DNA of 33,275 nt. Source: Porticoccaceae bacterium. Its GTDB lineage: Bacteria; Pseudomonadota; Gammaproteobacteria; Pseudomonadales; Porticoccaceae. This document shows positions 1,681-29,926 of this stretch, piece after piece. The position numbers were made by a program, and so were the translations under genes. Each line of letters starts with the position of its first letter. Position 1 is the stretch's first letter. Below the pieces are notes generated by a model. The model ran no database searches. It was not told the origin of the DNA and worked only from the letters and a program-made list of their open reading frames with translations. The stretch covers positions 1-33,275 of the forward strand of contig JAHRWI010000181.1 of the NCBI GenBank assembly GCA_019090225.1, read 5' to 3'.

Positions 1681-3614
1681 AGCGCGAGCAAACAAAAAGT
1701 CGTCGACCTTCTGGGTCTAAGTCTAGATCGTCTCGTGGTCGACAGCCGGGTGCTCGACAGCTTGGTCTGTCAGCCTGGCGTTATCGCGTAGTGGTGGTCG
1801 GGTTGGCGCTACTGCCGCTTGCTGCGCTGTGGAAGATTGCCAGCTTGCAGGTGCTGCCAGATATTGATCGGGGCTTTGAGTTTTTGAAGGGTCAGGGTGA
1901 CGACCGGATGGTGCGCAAGGAAGAAATTCCCGGTTATCGCGGTGTCATAACCGACCGCAGAGGTGAGCCTCTAGCGGTGAGTACGCCGGTCTTGTCCATA
2001 TGGGCTGACCCGAGAGTGCTTGATGCCAATGCAGATCAGCTTGCTCCACTAGCTCGGCAGTTGGGTATAAAGCTCAGTGTCCTGACTGGTCGCATCGCGC
2101 ATTATGCAGGCAAAGAATTTATGTATTTGTCGCGGCGGATAACGCCGCGACAGGCCGAGGCGATTCTTGAGCTGGGTATTCCCGGAGTTTACAAAAACAC
2201 CGAGTACAAGCGCTACTACCCGGCTGGTGAAGTCACGGCTCAGTTGGTCGGTTTTACCGACATTGATGATGTTGGTCAGGAAGGCATGGAGCTGGCCTTC
2301 AACGAGAGCCTGGCTGGGCGCTCTGGATTCAGGCAGGTGCTTAAGGATCAAAAGGGTCGTGTCATCAAAGACCTCCGATTATTGAGTAGTGAAAAACCCG
2401 GTAAGAATCTCGCCTTGAGTATTGATTTGCGACTGCAATATGCGGCCTATCGGGAATTGAAAGCGGCGATTACTCACTTTCGTGCGGCCTCAGGCTCGGT
2501 GGTAATTCTCGATGTTCACAGTGGCGAAGTACTGGCCATGGTTAATCAGCCTTCGTTTAACCCCAATGATCGCAGTCGCTTGAACACCCAGGCCATGCGC
2601 AACCGGGCGGCAACCGACCTTATTGAGCCTGGTTCTATCATGAAGCCCCTGACCATGGTGGCGGCTTTGGAGAGCGGCAAGTTTCATCCCAGCACCGTCA
2701 TCGATACCAGTCCGGGGCACTTCCGGGTCGGTCGTAAAACCTTTGTTGACCACAAAAATTATGGCCCGCTTGATCTCACTGGGATTCTTAAGAAATCGAG
2801 CCAGGTAGGTACCACCAAGATCGCCATGGCATTAGAGCCTGAAGCGATCCGTGGGGTATTCGAGCGAGTCGGTTTAGGGCAAGGGCCGGGTACGGGTTTT
2901 CCCGGTGAATCGGCTGGTTTTTTGCCGAATAAGCAGCGTTGGCGACCAGTTGAAAGAGCGACCATGGCTTTCGGTTATGGCCTGGCGGTAACGCCTCTGC
3001 AATTAGCGCAGGCCTACGGTGTGTTGGCGAGTGGGGGTACTAAAACAGCAGTATCGCTGTTGAAGATATCGCCTGAAGACAGGCAAGTCCCGAGCGAGCT
3101 TGATCGGGTTATCCCCTCTGCTATCGCCGTGGATGTGCGCGAAATGATGAAGTCGGTGCTAGAGAAGGGTGGTACCGGAACCAGAGCGGCGATTCCAGGT
3201 TATGAGGTGGCAGGTAAAACCGGAACCAGCCACAAAGTGGGGGCGGCAGGTTATCAGCAGGATCATTATGTTTCGCTATTTGCTGGTATGGTGCCAGCAG
3301 ATTCCCCTCGCCTGGTAGCGGTGGTGGTGATTGATGATCCACGTAGTGAAGACTATTACGGTGGTCTCGTGGCTGCCCCGGTGTTTTCAAAAGTCACTGC
3401 TGAGGCCTTGCGTTTTCTAAATATTCCACCGGATATTCCCTTTCCAAAATCAGAGCTTGTCACGGCTAAAGAAGCCTCGTTTAAAGAAGACTTGCCTAAA
3501 GAAACCTCACCCAAAGACGTGCAAACAAGCAGATCTGGTGCGGATAAGTCGATGGCGAAATCAGACCTTGCCGGAGTGCAGAAGCTTGTTCGCGCACAGG
3601 GTGGCGCAACGTGA
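1677..3614 (+). CDS. ftsI: Septal peptidoglycan transpeptidase FtsI (PBP3)
   Basis: FtsI crosslinks septal peptidoglycan in the periplasm with its partner polymerase FtsW. The 645-residue product has a basic cytoplasmic N-terminus, one transmembrane anchor (about 35-55), a pedestal domain and a C-terminal transpeptidase domain. The serine nucleophile lies in PGSIMKP (S320, SxxK) and the KTGT box is at 514-517. The SxN box reads SSQ (374-376) instead of the usual SSN, a rare-looking change. The last 60 or so residues form a hydrophilic tail containing a 5-residue repeat (see repeat feature) not expected in the family. The start is TTG, sharing TTGA with the ftsL stop; no better in-frame start fits the N-terminal anchor. 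The murE start overlaps its stop. Confidence 0.97.
   Translation: MKREQTKSRRPSGSKSRSSRGRQPGARQLGLSAWRYRVVVVGLALLPLAALWKIASLQVLPDIDRGFEFLKGQGDDRMVRKEEIPGYRGVITDRRGEPLAVSTPVLSIWADPRVLDANADQLAPLARQLGIKLSVLTGRIAHYAGKEFMYLSRRITPRQAEAILELGIPGVYKNTEYKRYYPAGEVTAQLVGFTDIDDVGQEGMELAFNESLAGRSGFRQVLKDQKGRVIKDLRLLSSEKPGKNLALSIDLRLQYAAYRELKAAITHFRAASGSVVILDVHSGEVLAMVNQPSFNPNDRSRLNTQAMRNRAATDLIEPGSIMKPLTMVAALESGKFHPSTVIDTSPGHFRVGRKTFVDHKNYGPLDLTGILKKSSQVGTTKIAMALEPEAIRGVFERVGLGQGPGTGFPGESAGFLPNKQRWRPVERATMAFGYGLAVTPLQLAQAYGVLASGGTKTAVSLLKISPEDRQVPSELDRVIPSAIAVDVREMMKSVLEKGGTGTRAAIPGYEVAGKTGTSHKVGAAGYQQDHYVSLFAGMVPADSPRLVAVVVIDDPRSEDYYGGLVAAPVFSKVTAEALRFLNIPPDIPFPKSELVTAKEASFKEDLPKETSPKDVQTSRSGADKSMAKSDLAGVQKLVRAQGGAT
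3456..3515 (+). repeat. 15-nt degenerate tandem repeat in the ftsI 3' end
   Basis: Four in-frame 15-nt units encode LVTAK, EASFK, EDLPK and ETSPK, then a decayed unit DVQTS. The last three main units share GAA at the start and AAA at the end, with divergent centres. It lies in the hydrophilic tail after the transpeptidase domain, so growth or loss of units should be tolerated. Seen directly; origin by repeat expansion is inferred. Confidence 0.7.
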
Positions 3615-5359
3615 TGGCCGCGCAGAAAAATACAGCTGTCATGACCCTGCGGGATTTATTACCCGATATGGAAATGATGGCTGAGTCAGTGATTTTGCCG
3701 CGAACCGTTAGTGCAGAATCAGTGGCAGAGATTGGTGTCAGTGGACTCCAGCTCGATAGCCGCAAGGTCCGGCCCGGAGATGTGTTTATTGCGGTGCCAG
3801 GTTTCGATCAAAATAAGCCAGTCGATGGCCGACAGTTTATCGGTCAGGCACTTGCCGCGGGTGCCGTGGCGGTGCTCGCGGAGCACGAGGCATGGTCCGA
3901 GCAAGCTTTAAAACAAGATGGGCTCGAACAAGACGAAACCAGGCAAGCATTGCCTGAGTATGGAGTGCCGGTAGTCTTGATTGCCGGTTTAGTCAGCCAG
4001 ATAAGTTCTATCGCCGGGCGCTTTTACGATCAGCCCAGTGAGCATATGCGGGTGATCGGAATCACTGGCACGAACGGCAAGACCACCTGTTCCCACCTGC
4101 TTGCGCAACTGTTCAACCAGCTCAAGGTCACGGCGGCTGTGATTGGTACGTTGGGTTACGGTGTGTCGGATCGGCTTGCGCCAAAGTCCGGTGGGTCTGG
4201 TGGCGATAATGCTGAGAGTCAAAGTGCCGGAGGCTTAATTAACAGGGACTTAACTAATAGGGGGTTGGTTAACAAAGACTTGATCAGTACCGGTTTAACG
4301 ACGCCGGATGCGGTGCTTAGCCAGGCCATCCTGGCTGACATGCGTGCCGCCGATGTGGCCTGTGTGGCGATGGAGGTGTCTTCTCATAGTCTTGATCAGG
4401 GCCGGATTAGCGGTGTCCGCGTGGCCGGGGCGGTGTTTACCAATCTCAGTCAGGATCATCTGGATTATCACGGCACGATGGCGGCGTATCTGGCGGCCAA
4501 AGAAAAACTCTTCCAGATGCCGGGCCTTGAATTCGGGGTTATTAATGTCGATGACCCGGCCGGGCTTGCCCTTGTTGAAGCGCTTGATAGCAGCATAAAA
4601 GTTTATACCTATTCACTAAGCGCAGATTCTTTTACAGCGAAAGATAGCGCGGTTTATGTCAGTAATATTCGCTACTCGGCACAAGGCATAGAGGCTGATG
4701 TCGTTAGCCCATGGGGTGAAGCGCGCATACAGAGTCGACTGGTCGGCGAATTTAATCTGAGTAATCTCCTGGCGGTTATGACCACCGCTTGCGCCAGTGG
4801 TCTGGCTTTTGATCAGGTGATGCCAGCGCTAAGTCAGTTGCGACCTGTGCCTGGTCGTCTAGAGGTGATTAACGAGGGATCGGGTCCGAGAGTCGTTATT
4901 GACTATGCTCATACGCCCGACGCTCTGTCGAATACCTTGAGCGCTTTGCGCTATACCGCAACTAGTTCGAGTGGGGCGTCCAGCAAGGACTCCAGTGCTA
5001 AATTGTGGTGCGTATTTGGTTGTGGCGGAGATCGGGACAAAGGCAAGCGTCCGGCGATGGCCGCCGTTGCTGGTGAATTGGCAGACGAGATAGTCGTCAC
5101 CAGTGATAACCCTCGTAACGAAGCGCCAGAGAATATTATTGATGACATCCTGTCTGGCGCGAATCGATTGTTTCATCGTATCGAAGACCGGGCTGAGGCC
5201 ATTGCTTTTGCTATCAGCCACGCTGAACCGCAAGACACCGTGCTGATTGCCGGTAAGGGTCATGAGGATTTCCAAATAAATGGTGAGAGCCGTTTACCCT
5301 TTAGCGATGCTGCACAGGCACGTTTAGCGCTCAGGCATAGGGAAGGTGGTCATGAGTAA
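3614..5359 (+). CDS. murE: UDP-MurNAc-tripeptide ligase (meso-DAP adding) MurE
   Basis: MurE adds meso-diaminopimelate to UDP-MurNAc-L-Ala-D-Glu in the cytoplasm, using ATP. The Mur ligase P-loop GTNGKTT lies near residue 153, and DNPR near residue 499 is the motif that selects meso-DAP over lysine. At about 580 residues it is well above the usual 490-500. The excess is in three places: a Gln-rich stretch before GVPVV, a roughly 40-residue insertion between IGTLGYG and TTPD containing a 15-nt repeat, and a Ser-rich loop before LWCVFGCGG. Start: a GTG at 3611 shares GTGA with the ftsI stop, while the adjacent ATG at 3614 is used here. The 3' end overlaps murF by 8 nt. Confidence 0.97.
   Translation: MAAQKNTAVMTLRDLLPDMEMMAESVILPRTVSAESVAEIGVSGLQLDSRKVRPGDVFIAVPGFDQNKPVDGRQFIGQALAAGAVAVLAEHEAWSEQALKQDGLEQDETRQALPEYGVPVVLIAGLVSQISSIAGRFYDQPSEHMRVIGITGTNGKTTCSHLLAQLFNQLKVTAAVIGTLGYGVSDRLAPKSGGSGGDNAESQSAGGLINRDLTNRGLVNKDLISTGLTTPDAVLSQAILADMRAADVACVAMEVSSHSLDQGRISGVRVAGAVFTNLSQDHLDYHGTMAAYLAAKEKLFQMPGLEFGVINVDDPAGLALVEALDSSIKVYTYSLSADSFTAKDSAVYVSNIRYSAQGIEADVVSPWGEARIQSRLVGEFNLSNLLAVMTTACASGLAFDQVMPALSQLRPVPGRLEVINEGSGPRVVIDYAHTPDALSNTLSALRYTATSSSGASSKDSSAKLWCVFGCGGDRDKGKRPAMAAVAGELADEIVVTSDNPRNEAPENIIDDILSGANRLFHRIEDRAEAIAFAISHAEPQDTVLIAGKGHEDFQINGESRLPFSDAAQARLALRHREGGHE
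4235..4294 (+). repeat. 15-nt degenerate tandem repeat inside murE
   Basis: Four consecutive in-frame 15-nt units begin at 4235, 4250, 4265 and 4280 and encode LINRD, LTNRG, LVNKD and LISTG, running directly into the conserved TTPD of MurE. Units 1-3 resemble each other in DNA (TTAATTAACAGGGAC as type). The last unit corresponds to the native TG-L-TTPD region, which suggests the array grew from or inserted next to it. The array sits in a surface insertion, not in the ATP or DAP sites. Confidence 0.75.
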
Positions 5360-6725
5360 TTTAACCTTGTCCCAGGCTGCGGTGGCTTATGGCGGCACCT
5401 TGCTGTATCCGGATTGCGGTTTTAGTCATGTGTCCACAGATTCTCGGACAGTTGCTGCCGGGGATTTGTTTGTGGCTTTGCGCGGTGAATCATTCGATGC
5501 CCATTTATTTCTTAAACAGGCCGCCAGCAAAGCCTGCGGTTTAGTTGTTCAATACCCTGATAAACAACTCGATGTTCCGCAATGGGTGGTCCCAGATACA
5601 GTGCAGGCTTTGGGTCAGTTAGCGGCTATGGCGCGCGAGCAGTTTGATGGCCCCTTAGTGGCTCTCACTGGCAGCAGTGGCAAGACCACGGTGAAAGAAA
5701 TGCTGGCGAGTATTCTCGCTTGCGTGGCACCGGTGCTAGCCACGCAGGGCAACCTGAATAATTACATCGGAGTACCGAAAACCTTATTGAGATTGGAGCC
5801 AGAGCACCGTTTTGCCGTGCTCGAATTAGGCGCCAGCGCACCTGGCGAGATAGCCTATCTCGCCAGTTTGGTTAAGCCGACCATCGCCTTGGTGACCAAC
5901 GTTTTACCGGCTCACGTTGAAGGTTTTGGCTCTCTGGCCGGCGTTGCCGCCGCCAAGGGTGAAATCTATCGCAGTCTCGATGGTTCAGGTGTTGCGGTTC
6001 TTAATCTGGATGAGCCCTGGTTAGAGCAGTGGCAACAATCCTTGCCTTGCCTCGAGACCGTGACGTTTAGTCTCGATAAAGCGGAGGCCGATGTTTATGC
6101 CAGCGATATACGTTTAGACGTCGAGGGCTGTGCGGCGTTTGTATTGAATATTTGTCGAGATCAGGCAAGGGATCAATTGCCCGTTCAGCTGCGTATACCT
6201 GGCCGTCATAACGTCAATAATGCCCTGGCAGCTGCGGCCTGCGCTGTGGCTGCAGGTCTCGAAATCACCACCATTGCGGCGGGTCTGGAGTCAGTGTCGG
6301 CGGTGGCCGGGCGCATGGAATATAAGACCGGCCTTAAAGGCTGCCGGGTAATCGACGATAGTTATAACGCGAATCCGGGTTCCGTGAAAGCGGCTATTGA
6401 TGTGCTGGCTGGCTTAGAAGGCCGCCGGATACTGGTGCTCGGTGATATGGCAGAGCTTGGTGCCGATGCTGACAAGCTGCATTACGAAGTCGGCGAGTAC
6501 GCCACGGAACAGGGTGTCGATTTGCTTCTGGCAACCGGAAATTTATGCGCCCATGCCATTGCTGGTTTTGGTGATGAAGGCCGTCTCTGCGCGAATAAAG
6601 ACGCCCTTGTCGAGTCCTTGCTCCCTGAATTGCGAGGCGATGTCACAGTGCTGGTCAAGGGTTCCCGTAGTGCGGGCATGAATGAATTGGTTGAACAGAT
6701 CGTTATCGCAGGGGGAAGTGCCTGA
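5352..6725 (+). CDS. murF: UDP-MurNAc-tripeptide-D-alanyl-D-alanine ligase MurF
   Basis: MurF adds D-Ala-D-Ala to the UDP-MurNAc-tripeptide, completing the cytoplasmic pentapeptide precursor. The P-loop [12 protein letters not shown] and the downstream [23 protein letters not shown] and [10 protein letters not shown] segments are diagnostic. Length, about 458 residues, is normal. The ORF track opens at GTG 5346, but ATG at 5352 follows GGAAGG by 5 nt and gives the N-terminus [10 protein letters not shown], so it is preferred. It overlaps murE by 8 nt and shares TGATG with mraY. Confidence 0.97.
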
Positions 6726-7807
6726 TGCTTTATTGGTTAGCCGACTATTTATCTCAGTACATGAGTACCCTGGCGGTCTTCAAATACCTGACCCTCCGGG
6801 CGATTTTGGGAATTCTCACATCGCTGAGTATCTCTTTGTTATTGGGGCCAATGGTGATTAGGCGTCTCAATGATATGCAGATCGGTCAGGCGGTACGCGA
6901 TGACGGTCCGCAAAGTCATTTAATTAAAGCCGGTACCCCGACTATGGGTGGGGCGCTGATTCTCTTATCAATTTTTACCAGTACCTTGCTGTGGGCGGAC
7001 TTAAGTAATCGCTATGTGTGGGTGGTTCTGGCGGTGACGTTTTTGTTTGGTGCCGTGGGTTGGGTGGATGATTATCGCAAAGTGGTCGAAAAGCACTCTC
7101 AGGGTTTATCCGCACGCTGGAAATATTTCTGGCAGTCGCTGATTGGTTTGAGTGCGGCGGTATTTTTGTTTGTCAGCGCAACGTCGCCAGCGGAAACGCA
7201 ATTGATCGTACCCTTCTTTAAAAGCGTCGCCTGGGATATGGGCATCTTTTATGTGGTTCTGACTTATCTGGTCATTGTCGGTTCGAGTAATGCTGTGAAT
7301 CTCACCGATGGCCTTGACGGCCTGGCCATTATGCCGACGGTACTGGTGGGTGGCGCACTGGGCGTGATTGCTTATCTGGCCGGTAATATCGAATTCGCCA
7401 GTTATTTACATATTCCCTACATCCGTGGTGCAGGCGAGCTGGTGATATTTTGTACAGCCTTGGGTGGCGCTGGTCTTGGCTTCCTGTGGTTTAACACTTA
7501 TCCCGCGCAAATCTTTATGGGCGATGTCGGTTCCCTGGCCCTTGGCGCAGCGCTGGGTATCGTCGCGGTGATCGTCCGTCACGAAATCGTGTTGTTCATT
7601 ATGGGTGGGATTTTTGTTCTTGAAACGGTTTCGGTGATTTTGCAGGTGGCGTCTTTCAAGCTTACAGGTAAGCGTATTTTTCGTATGGCACCCATTCACC
7701 ACCATTTTGAGTTGAAAGGCTGGCCGGAACCAAGGGTGATTGTACGTTTCTGGATTATCACCGTGATGCTGGTTTTATTTGGACTGGCGACTTTAAAGCT
7801 CAGGTAA
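6725..7807 (+). CDS. mraY: Phospho-MurNAc-pentapeptide transferase MraY
   Basis: MraY transfers phospho-MurNAc-pentapeptide to undecaprenyl phosphate at the inner membrane, forming lipid I. The 360-residue product is polytopic with about ten transmembrane segments. The catalytic-loop motifs are present: [27 protein letters not shown] and the histidine-rich [15 protein letters not shown]. The start ATG overlaps the murF stop by one base (TGATG). It is followed by an unusual 117-nt spacer holding a 15-nt tandem repeat before murD. Confidence 0.98.
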
Positions 7808-7826
7808 TGGCAGTAAAGCAGGGGTG

Positions 7827-7952
7827 ATGAAAACACCTGAAATAACAAGGTATGACATTAGTAAGAGCGACCTAACTAGCTACGACATAAACAGGTACGA
7901 CATAAACAGGTACGACGTAAATAGATGCAAGAGCAGGCTGTGGGAAATTTAA
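7827..7952 (+). CDS. Putative 41-codon micro-ORF of pentapeptide repeats, overlapping the murD start
   Basis: The ORF is too short for the ORF track. ATG at 7827 follows AGGGG closely (2-4 nt, tight for a ribosome binding site) and reads to TAA at 7952. After MKT it gives six 5-residue units, PEITR, YDISK, SDLTS, YDINR, YDINR and YDVNR, then a short tail CKSRLWEI. The murD ATG lies inside it in another frame, and murD itself has no clear Shine-Dalgarno sequence, so the micro-ORF could couple mraY and murD translation. Equally, the open frame may simply be a by-product of a 15-nt repeat. No family is recognised. Translation is unproven. Confidence 0.3.
   Translation: MKTPEITRYDISKSDLTSYDINRYDINRYDVNRCKSRLWEI
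7836..7925 (+). repeat. Six-unit 15-nt tandem repeat in the mraY-murD spacer
   Basis: The units are CCTGAAATAACAAGG, TATGACATTAGTAAG, AGCGACCTAACTAGC, TACGACATAAACAGG (twice, identical) and TACGACGTAAATAGA. Period is exactly 15 nt, with divergence increasing towards the 5' end. The array runs up to the A of the murD ATG. The GACYTAACTA and ATNAACAGG strings recur in the murE array. Confidence 0.85.
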
Positions 7953-29478: not shown

Positions 29479-29913
29479 ATGCAAAAGACACACAAGCAAA
29501 AAGGTTTTACGTTGATCGAACTGATGATCGTAATTGCCATTATTGGTATTCTGGCCGCGATCGCGTTGCCCGCTTATCAGGATTATACGATTCGTACCAA
29601 GGTAACTGAGGGTGTTGGCTTATCCGGTGCCGCAAAACTGGCTGTTGCCGAAACTGCGCAGGCGCTCGGAATATTAGCCACCGCTGTCGACCAGACTAAT
29701 TCAGGTTATAACTTGTCAGGTAGTCCTAAGTATGTCTCGGGTATTACCATTGCCAATGGCGTTATTTCGGTTGTAACGGCAAATACCGGTGCAAGCACCG
29801 AGCCTGAATTAGATATCACTCCTGTCCAAGCCGCTCTGGATGATGTCGTTTCTTGGGAATGTTCGACGACGACTGGCGAATTTAAACACGTTCCTGCCGA
29901 ATGTCGTAACTAG
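29479..29913 (+). CDS. pilA: Type IV major pilin PilA
   Basis: PilA is the structural subunit of the type IV pilus. The leader ends KQKG and is cut by PilD before F10 of [20 protein letters not shown]; the mature Glu5 (E14) is present. The rest of the 144-residue protein includes the [15 protein letters not shown] helix end and a C-terminal disulfide loop between C128 and C142, ending ECRN. ATG at 29479 is 7 nt after AAGGAG. Transcription is probably RpoN dependent. A 14-nt tandem duplication spans the stop codon, and a perfect palindromic terminator follows. Confidence 0.97.
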
Positions 29914-29926
29914 AATGTCGTAACTA
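29899..29926 (+). repeat. 14-nt tandem duplication across the pilA stop codon
   Basis: GAATGTCGTAACTA occurs twice in direct succession. The first copy encodes the last residues of PilA and supplies the first two bases of TAG; the second is outside the gene. Without the duplication the stop would be TAA, so the protein would be unchanged. Confidence 0.85.

What the first reader, a model, noticed from the sequence alone, without database searches (positions are those of the whole stretch)
3456..7925. Possible dispersed family of 15-nt in-frame repeats within the wall-synthesis operon
Three arrays with the same 15-nt period occur within 4.5 kb. The murE and spacer arrays also share DNA (GACTTAACTA versus GACCTAACTA; ATTAACAGG versus ATAAACAGG) and peptide type (DLTNR versus SDLTS; LINR versus DINR), as if copies of one element. 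A period of five codons lets arrays enter genes without breaking the frame, similar in effect to Rickettsia palindromic elements but of different build. I do not recognise a described family.
Basis: inference. Interest (0 to 1): 0.78.

Follow-up and report, generated by a model that had tools for sequence, protein, structure and literature searches.

The report
Genome-wide ~14-nt tandem duplications, lineage-restricted
The three 15-letter repeats are not copies of one mobile sequence; they are local examples of something that happens across this whole bacterial genome and in some relatives, where short stretches of DNA about 14 letters long keep being duplicated in place, and genes keep only the duplications that preserve the reading frame (15 letters).

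Summary
The three lag-15 arrays are real: ftsI 3463-3522, murE 4232-4306, mraY-murD spacer 7851-7925. They are not a sequence family. Unit consensuses at 31 period-15 arrays in this genome resemble each other no more than shuffled ones (465 pairs), and a unit motif is not enriched.

The genome is nevertheless full of such arrays. In 646 kb sampled I found 16, 27 and 7 arrays of period 14, 15 and 16, against 0-0.4 in shuffles. In non-coding DNA, tandem pairs peak at 14 nt (20, 12 and 7 pairs of 14, 15 and 16 nt; none expected), with little excess below 9 or above 19. Off-frame periods never lie inside called genes (0 of 26), whereas period 15 does (18 of 27).

Adjacent units are more alike than distant ones and differ by excess transitions, so arrays grew stepwise. 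The same signature occurs in a congener, another genus of the family and one genome of another family. It is near absent in other relatives and in E. coli.

Best reading: a lineage-restricted mutational process duplicates ~11-17 nt in place, filtered by frame selection. The enzyme is unknown. The large repeat surveys I found cover units of at most 11 nt.

The parts
3463..3522 (+). 15-nt array, four degenerate units in frame in the ftsI C-terminal tail (TAKEASFKEDLPKETSPKDVQ)
   Evidence: the tail lies beyond the Pfam transpeptidase domain, which ends at residue 573; congener G004 has an unrelated 15-nt array in the same tail
4232..4306 (+). 15-nt array, five degenerate units in frame in murE (GLINR DLTNR GLVNK DLIST GLTTP); the last unit overlaps the conserved TTPDA motif and may be the parent
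   Evidence: insert absent in nine MurE orthologues except G016, which has its own array there; residues 188-214 and 219-221 have pLDDT below 50 in a model of mean 83
7851..7925 (+). 15-nt array, five units (TATGACATTAGTAAG, AGCGACCTAACTAGC, TACGACATAAACAGG twice, TACGACGTAAATAGA) in the mraY-murD spacer, ending on the murD ATG
   Evidence: spacer is ~10 nt in congener G004 and ~115 nt in G003 and here
29899..29926 (+). perfect 14-nt tandem duplication GAATGTCGTAACTA x2 straddling the stop codon of the pilin-like ORF 29479-29913

Best explanation
The arrays are products of a lineage-restricted mutational process that repeatedly duplicates a short local stretch of DNA head to tail. The duplicated length is about 14 nt (range ~11-17), whatever the sequence. 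A first duplication makes two copies, later rounds add units, and point mutations (enriched for transitions) blur the copies. Off-frame duplications survive only outside genes or across gene ends. Inside genes, duplications of 15 nt (sometimes 12 or 18) survive in flexible loops and tails, giving pentapeptide repeats. SHOWN: the genome-wide excess, the length peak in non-coding DNA, the frame filter, the lack of shared sequence, stepwise divergence, and the lineage distribution. INFERRED: that the cause is mutational rather than selection for function. GUESSED (about 0.35): the chemistry, namely strand-displacement or fill-in synthesis at a nick or staggered break, with a flap of roughly this length ligated in instead of trimmed.
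For: Own genome, 646 kb: periods 14, 15, 16 and 17 give 16, 27, 7 and 2 arrays (at least 28/45 lag matches) against 0-0.4 in locally shuffled sequence. Non-coding DNA only: tandem pairs at least 85% identical number 20 at 14 nt, 12 at 15, 7 at 16 and 3 at 17, with ~0 expected, and counts near expectation at 5-8 nt; rate for 13-17 nt is 381/Mb against 44/Mb in negative relatives plus E. coli, p=7e-10. Frame filter: off-frame periods 0 of 26 inside called genes, period 15 18 of 27, Fisher p=1e-7. True copies: 473 transitions to 448 transversions between adjacent units, against a ratio of ~0.42 for chance arrays. Stepwise growth: identity 0.69, 0.58 and 0.51 at one, two and three units apart, between the simulated burst and chain models. 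No shared sequence. Replicated in congener G003, G016 (another genus) and G030 (another family). Recent births: 19 isolated exact pairs of 11-17 nt in 1.40 Mb of array-bearing and intermediate genomes against 5 in 1.65 Mb of controls; 11 of all 20 isolated pairs have no microhomology. Lineage-specific gains in murE, the ftsI tail and the mraY-murD spacer.
Against: No enzyme was tied to the process: Pol I 5'-nuclease domain, MutS, ExoI and Y-family polymerases are present in array-rich and array-poor genomes alike, apart from isolated missing hits in G002 and G004. Nearly all sampled arrays in the own genome are already diverged (best score 38/45), so births there may be slow, past, or error-prone. 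Eight of 20 isolated pairs have at least 2 nt of extended match, so microhomology may help in some. The 28/45 threshold was chosen while looking at the own genome. Gene calls come from my own simple codon-usage caller.
Confidence: 0.78

Rival explanations
1. A dispersed mobile or copied 15-nt element family, similar in effect to Rickettsia palindromic elements.
For: Three arrays of one period within 4.5 kb and some shared words.
Against: Unit consensuses no more alike than shuffled ones; motif not enriched over its reversed control; periods 14, 16 and 17 occur with unrelated units; orthologous tails carry unrelated units.
Confidence: 0.03
2. Ordinary replication slippage at pre-existing short repeats, as in known simple sequence repeats, merely more frequent here.
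For: Tandem head-to-tail copies, stepwise growth, 2-3 nt of microhomology in some isolated pairs, a few heptamer arrays.
Against: Slippage should favour short units, yet non-coding pairs of 5-8 nt are near expectation and the excess peaks at 14 nt; units have no heptamer substructure; 11 of 20 isolated pairs have no microhomology.
Confidence: 0.2
3. Selection for function: repeated binding sites, or flexible charged linkers in proteins.
For: Coding arrays encode hydrophilic, probably disordered segments; the spacer array abuts a start codon.
Against: The same periodicity appears in coding and non-coding DNA with unrelated sequences; identity falls with distance between units rather than staying constant as for a constrained motif; dcw arrays are not conserved between congeners.
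Confidence: 0.08
4. Fill-in after insertion of an element or integrase with 14-15-bp target duplications (casposase or Cas1-like, or reverse transcriptase).
For: The length fits casposase target duplications (own knowledge). Weak Cas1-like ORFs occur in this genome, G002, G003, G004 and G030.
Against: G016, one of the array-richest genomes, has no Cas1, and array-poor G019 and G027 have one. No reverse transcriptase in this genome, G003 or G016. No inserted DNA between units.
Confidence: 0.04

Closest known systems
Long simple sequence repeats (Mrazek et al. 2007, as described in PMC4679880) and short tandem repeats across the tree of life (PMC12699852)
   Same: Tandem repeats enriched in particular prokaryotic lineages; units that are multiples of three preferred in genes.
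   Different: Those surveys cover units of 1-11 nt and 1-9 nt; here the peak is 14 nt, copies are degenerate, and non-coding pairs of 5-8 nt are near expectation.
TAACTGA heptamer direct repeats of Beggiatoaceae and Cyanobacteria (PMC4679880)
   Same: Many short arrays across a genome, often near start codons.
   Different: There one fixed sequence recurs; here each array has its own sequence and only the length is shared.
Close direct repeats (patterns 8n4g24, cd8g6) in a prokaryote-wide survey (PMC4060949)
   Same: Locally repeated octamers; such patterns would catch part of these arrays.
   Different: The survey does not resolve a period peak near 14 nt or a frame filter in the passages read.
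Bacterial minisatellites / VNTR loci
   Same: Tandem units longer than 9 nt, in genes and spacers (general knowledge).
   Different: Usually isolated loci with varied unit lengths (general knowledge); here I extrapolate roughly 300 arrays per genome within 12-18 nt from 66 in 646 kb.
Rickettsia palindromic elements
   Same: Tolerated in frame inside genes.
   Different: A shared palindromic sequence family; no shared sequence was found here.

Membership tests
Dispersed repeat element family (RPE-like) | Copies share sequence across loci | tested here: not met
   465 array pairs match the shuffled distribution; motif not enriched
Dispersed repeat element family (RPE-like) | Palindromic structure | not tested
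   No hairpin or palindrome scan of the units was run.
Simple sequence repeats (LSSR/STR) | Unit of 1-11 nt | tested here: not met
   Mode 14 nt in non-coding DNA; 5-8 nt near expectation
Simple sequence repeats (LSSR/STR) | Multiples of three preferred in genes | tested here: met
   0 of 26 off-frame arrays against 18 of 27 period-15 arrays inside called genes
TAACTGA-type fixed heptamer repeats | One recurrent heptamer | tested here: not met
   No shared unit; lag-7 identity within arrays at background
Bacterial minisatellites (VNTR) | Tandem head-to-tail units above 9 nt | tested here: met
Bacterial minisatellites (VNTR) | Copy number varies between strains | not testable with these tools
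   One genome per species is held; between species the array sites differ

The most novel reading that the evidence does not exclude
These bacteria have a distinct DNA replication or repair activity with a built-in length of about 14 nt that copies local sequence in place regardless of its content. It would be a mutational pathway unlike slippage, and it would supply new in-frame peptide repeats and lengthen spacers in several lineages.
Probability: 0.3. Interest if true: 0.85.

Novelty: new variant of a known kind. Interest (0 to 1): 0.62.

Why it matters
Bacterial tandem repeats are usually put down to slippage on short units or to mobile elements. A sequence-blind, length-specific duplication signature that appears and disappears between genera would make the origin of new tandem repeats directly testable by comparing cultured array-rich and array-poor relatives. 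It would also explain lineage-specific loops in essential proteins such as MurE and FtsI without invoking function, and it warns against reading such pentapeptide repeats as adaptive or as mobile elements.

Tried and rejected
Shared-motif family: rejected. Heptamer origin of 14-nt units: rejected, no lag-7 signal. Single-burst amplification: identity falls with unit distance, so unlikely. Loss of the Pol I 5'-nuclease domain, MutS or ExoI: no pattern. Ku end joining: no Ku in any of 18 genomes. Reverse transcriptase: absent from this genome, G003 and G016. Cas1: not correlated. Y-family polymerases: present in all but one genome, no pattern. Lead not settled: a second, ~300-aa 5'-3' exonuclease (Xni-like) is missing from G000, G003, G016 and G030 but also from array-poor G009, G028 and G029 (and from G010 and G021); hypergeometric p about 0.07 by hand, relatedness ignored. 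TRF at permissive settings did not separate genomes because GC-rich control genes give many weak hits; at stricter settings it does. First lag scan counted masked N runs as repeats and was redone. Rfam: no match in the window. I could not name the organism: genome handles are anonymous; the nearest named MurE hits (42-44% identity) are Cellvibrio and Microbulbifer. Literature: no paper on a 14-15-nt period found in seven repeat-related searches.

Full report
OBSERVATION. The window is a dcw cluster (mraZ to lpxC, then secA and others) from a fragmented genome of 3.1 Mb in 380 contigs, 84% complete. TRF and a lag scan confirm three period-15 arrays: in ftsI (units from 3463), murE (4232-4306) and the mraY-murD spacer (7851-7925). 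The spacer array is intergenic and runs into the murD ATG, so 'in-frame' fits only the first two. A perfect 14-nt duplication also straddles the stop codon of a pilin-like ORF at 29899-29926.

NOT A SEQUENCE FAMILY. The motif GACNTAAYWAACAGG with up to 2 mismatches has 56 hits genome-wide, fewer than its reversed control with 99. I sampled about 646 kb of the same genome and compared consensus units of 31 period-15 arrays in all rotations and both strands. The 465 pair scores have the same distribution as shuffled units. The murE-spacer pair scores 8 of 15, an ordinary value.

A FAMILY OF LENGTHS. The same sample holds 16, 27, 7 and 2 arrays of period 14, 15, 16 and 17 at 28 or more matches in 45; locally shuffled sequence gives 0-0.4. 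The arrays are listed; each has its own unit. In non-coding DNA, where frame does not matter, tandem pairs at least 85% identical number 20, 12, 7 and 3 at 14, 15, 16 and 17 nt against about zero expected, while 5-8 nt pairs are close to expectation and pairs above 19 nt are rare. A few of the 14-nt cases are heptamer arrays, but the remainder show no 7-nt substructure.

FRAME FILTER. None of 26 arrays of period 13, 14, 16 or 17 lies inside a called gene (they sit in spacers or across gene ends), against 18 of 27 of period 15; Fisher p = 1e-7. The genome sample is 83% coding by my caller. This is what a frame-blind process followed by purifying selection would give. Some N-terminal 'coding' arrays may lie upstream of the true start, a caveat of my simple gene caller.

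HISTORY OF ARRAYS. Adjacent units differ by 473 transitions and 448 transversions, against about 0.42 to 1 in chance arrays of control genomes, so they are true copies that diverged by mutation. Identity falls from 0.69 to 0.58 to 0.51 with distance in units, between the simulated single-burst and one-by-one models. This argues against one burst and against a conserved functional motif. Isolated exact pairs, the likely newest events, are 11-17 nt long in 19 of 20 cases in 1.40 Mb of array-bearing and intermediate genomes, against 5 in 1.65 Mb of controls; 11 of the 20 have no microhomology at the junction.

OTHER GENOMES. Off-frame arrays per Mb: own 40, congener G003 53, G016 (another genus) 100, G030 (another family, only 40 kb seen) 125; most other sampled relatives and E. 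coli 0, G006 and G010 intermediate on two arrays each, control dcw loci 1 (E. coli 50 kb there, 200 kb). Stricter TRF agrees: 73, 103, 150 and 175 per Mb of period 13-17, against 19 in negative relatives, 28 in control dcw loci and 0 in E. coli. Non-coding rates of 13-17-nt pairs are 381, 408 and 467 per Mb (own, G003, G016) against 44 per Mb. The thresholds were set on the own genome, so the other genomes serve as an independent check.

LOCAL HISTORY. The murE insert is absent from nine orthologues except G016, which has an unrelated 15-nt array in the same loop; G003 has its own array in another MurE loop; G004 has an unrelated array in its FtsI tail and a spacer of only about 10 nt between mraY and murD. 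In a predicted MurE structure (mean pLDDT 83) the insert region, residues 188-221, is the main low-confidence stretch. The insertions therefore fall where the protein tolerates them.

MECHANISM. I favour in-place duplication of about 14 nt during DNA repair or replication (mutational origin 0.78), by ligation of a displaced flap or fill-in of a staggered nick (about 0.35). That chemistry is a guess. Gene surveys over 18 genomes exclude Ku, and exclude reverse transcriptases in three of the four array-rich genomes. They show no pattern for the Pol I 5'-nuclease domain, MutS, ExoI, Y-family polymerases or Cas1. The only lead is the missing Xni-like exonuclease, which is neither sufficient nor statistically firm.

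KNOWN WORK. The surveys found cover units of at most 11 nt (Mrazek 2007, cited in PMC4679880) or 9 nt (PMC12699852); PMC4060949 treats 'close direct repeats' without, in the passages I read, a 14-nt peak; PMC4679880 describes one fixed heptamer. I found no description of a sequence-independent 14-nt peak, but the library holds only open-licence papers. Overall this is a new variant of bacterial minisatellites whose narrow length range and patchy distribution are the surprising parts.

Noticed in passing
window 29899-29926: Perfect 14-nt tandem duplication across the stop codon of a pilin-like gene, an off-frame example at a gene end.
   Followed up: yes
window 3908-3971: A second MurE-specific insert (residues ~100-115, pLDDT below 50) shows a weak 15-nt repetition (23/45), possibly a decayed array.
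   Followed up: partly
L225 4773-4900: In congener G003, a run of near-perfect 14-nt units (GCAGATCGAAATAG, then GCAGATCAAAATAG), probably a young array with a spreading single-base variant.
   Followed up: no
L274 17206-17330: Genome G030 from another family has a long array of about eight 15-nt units; only 40 kb of this genome was seen.
   Followed up: partly
G000:C257:3932-4585: Weak Cas1-like ORF (353 aa); similar ORFs in G002, G003, G004, G019, G027 and G030, perhaps a divergent CRISPR type. Not correlated with arrays.
   Followed up: partly
L143 8658-9325: One 376-aa protein of this genome carries separate 18-, 12- and 15-nt arrays.
   Followed up: no
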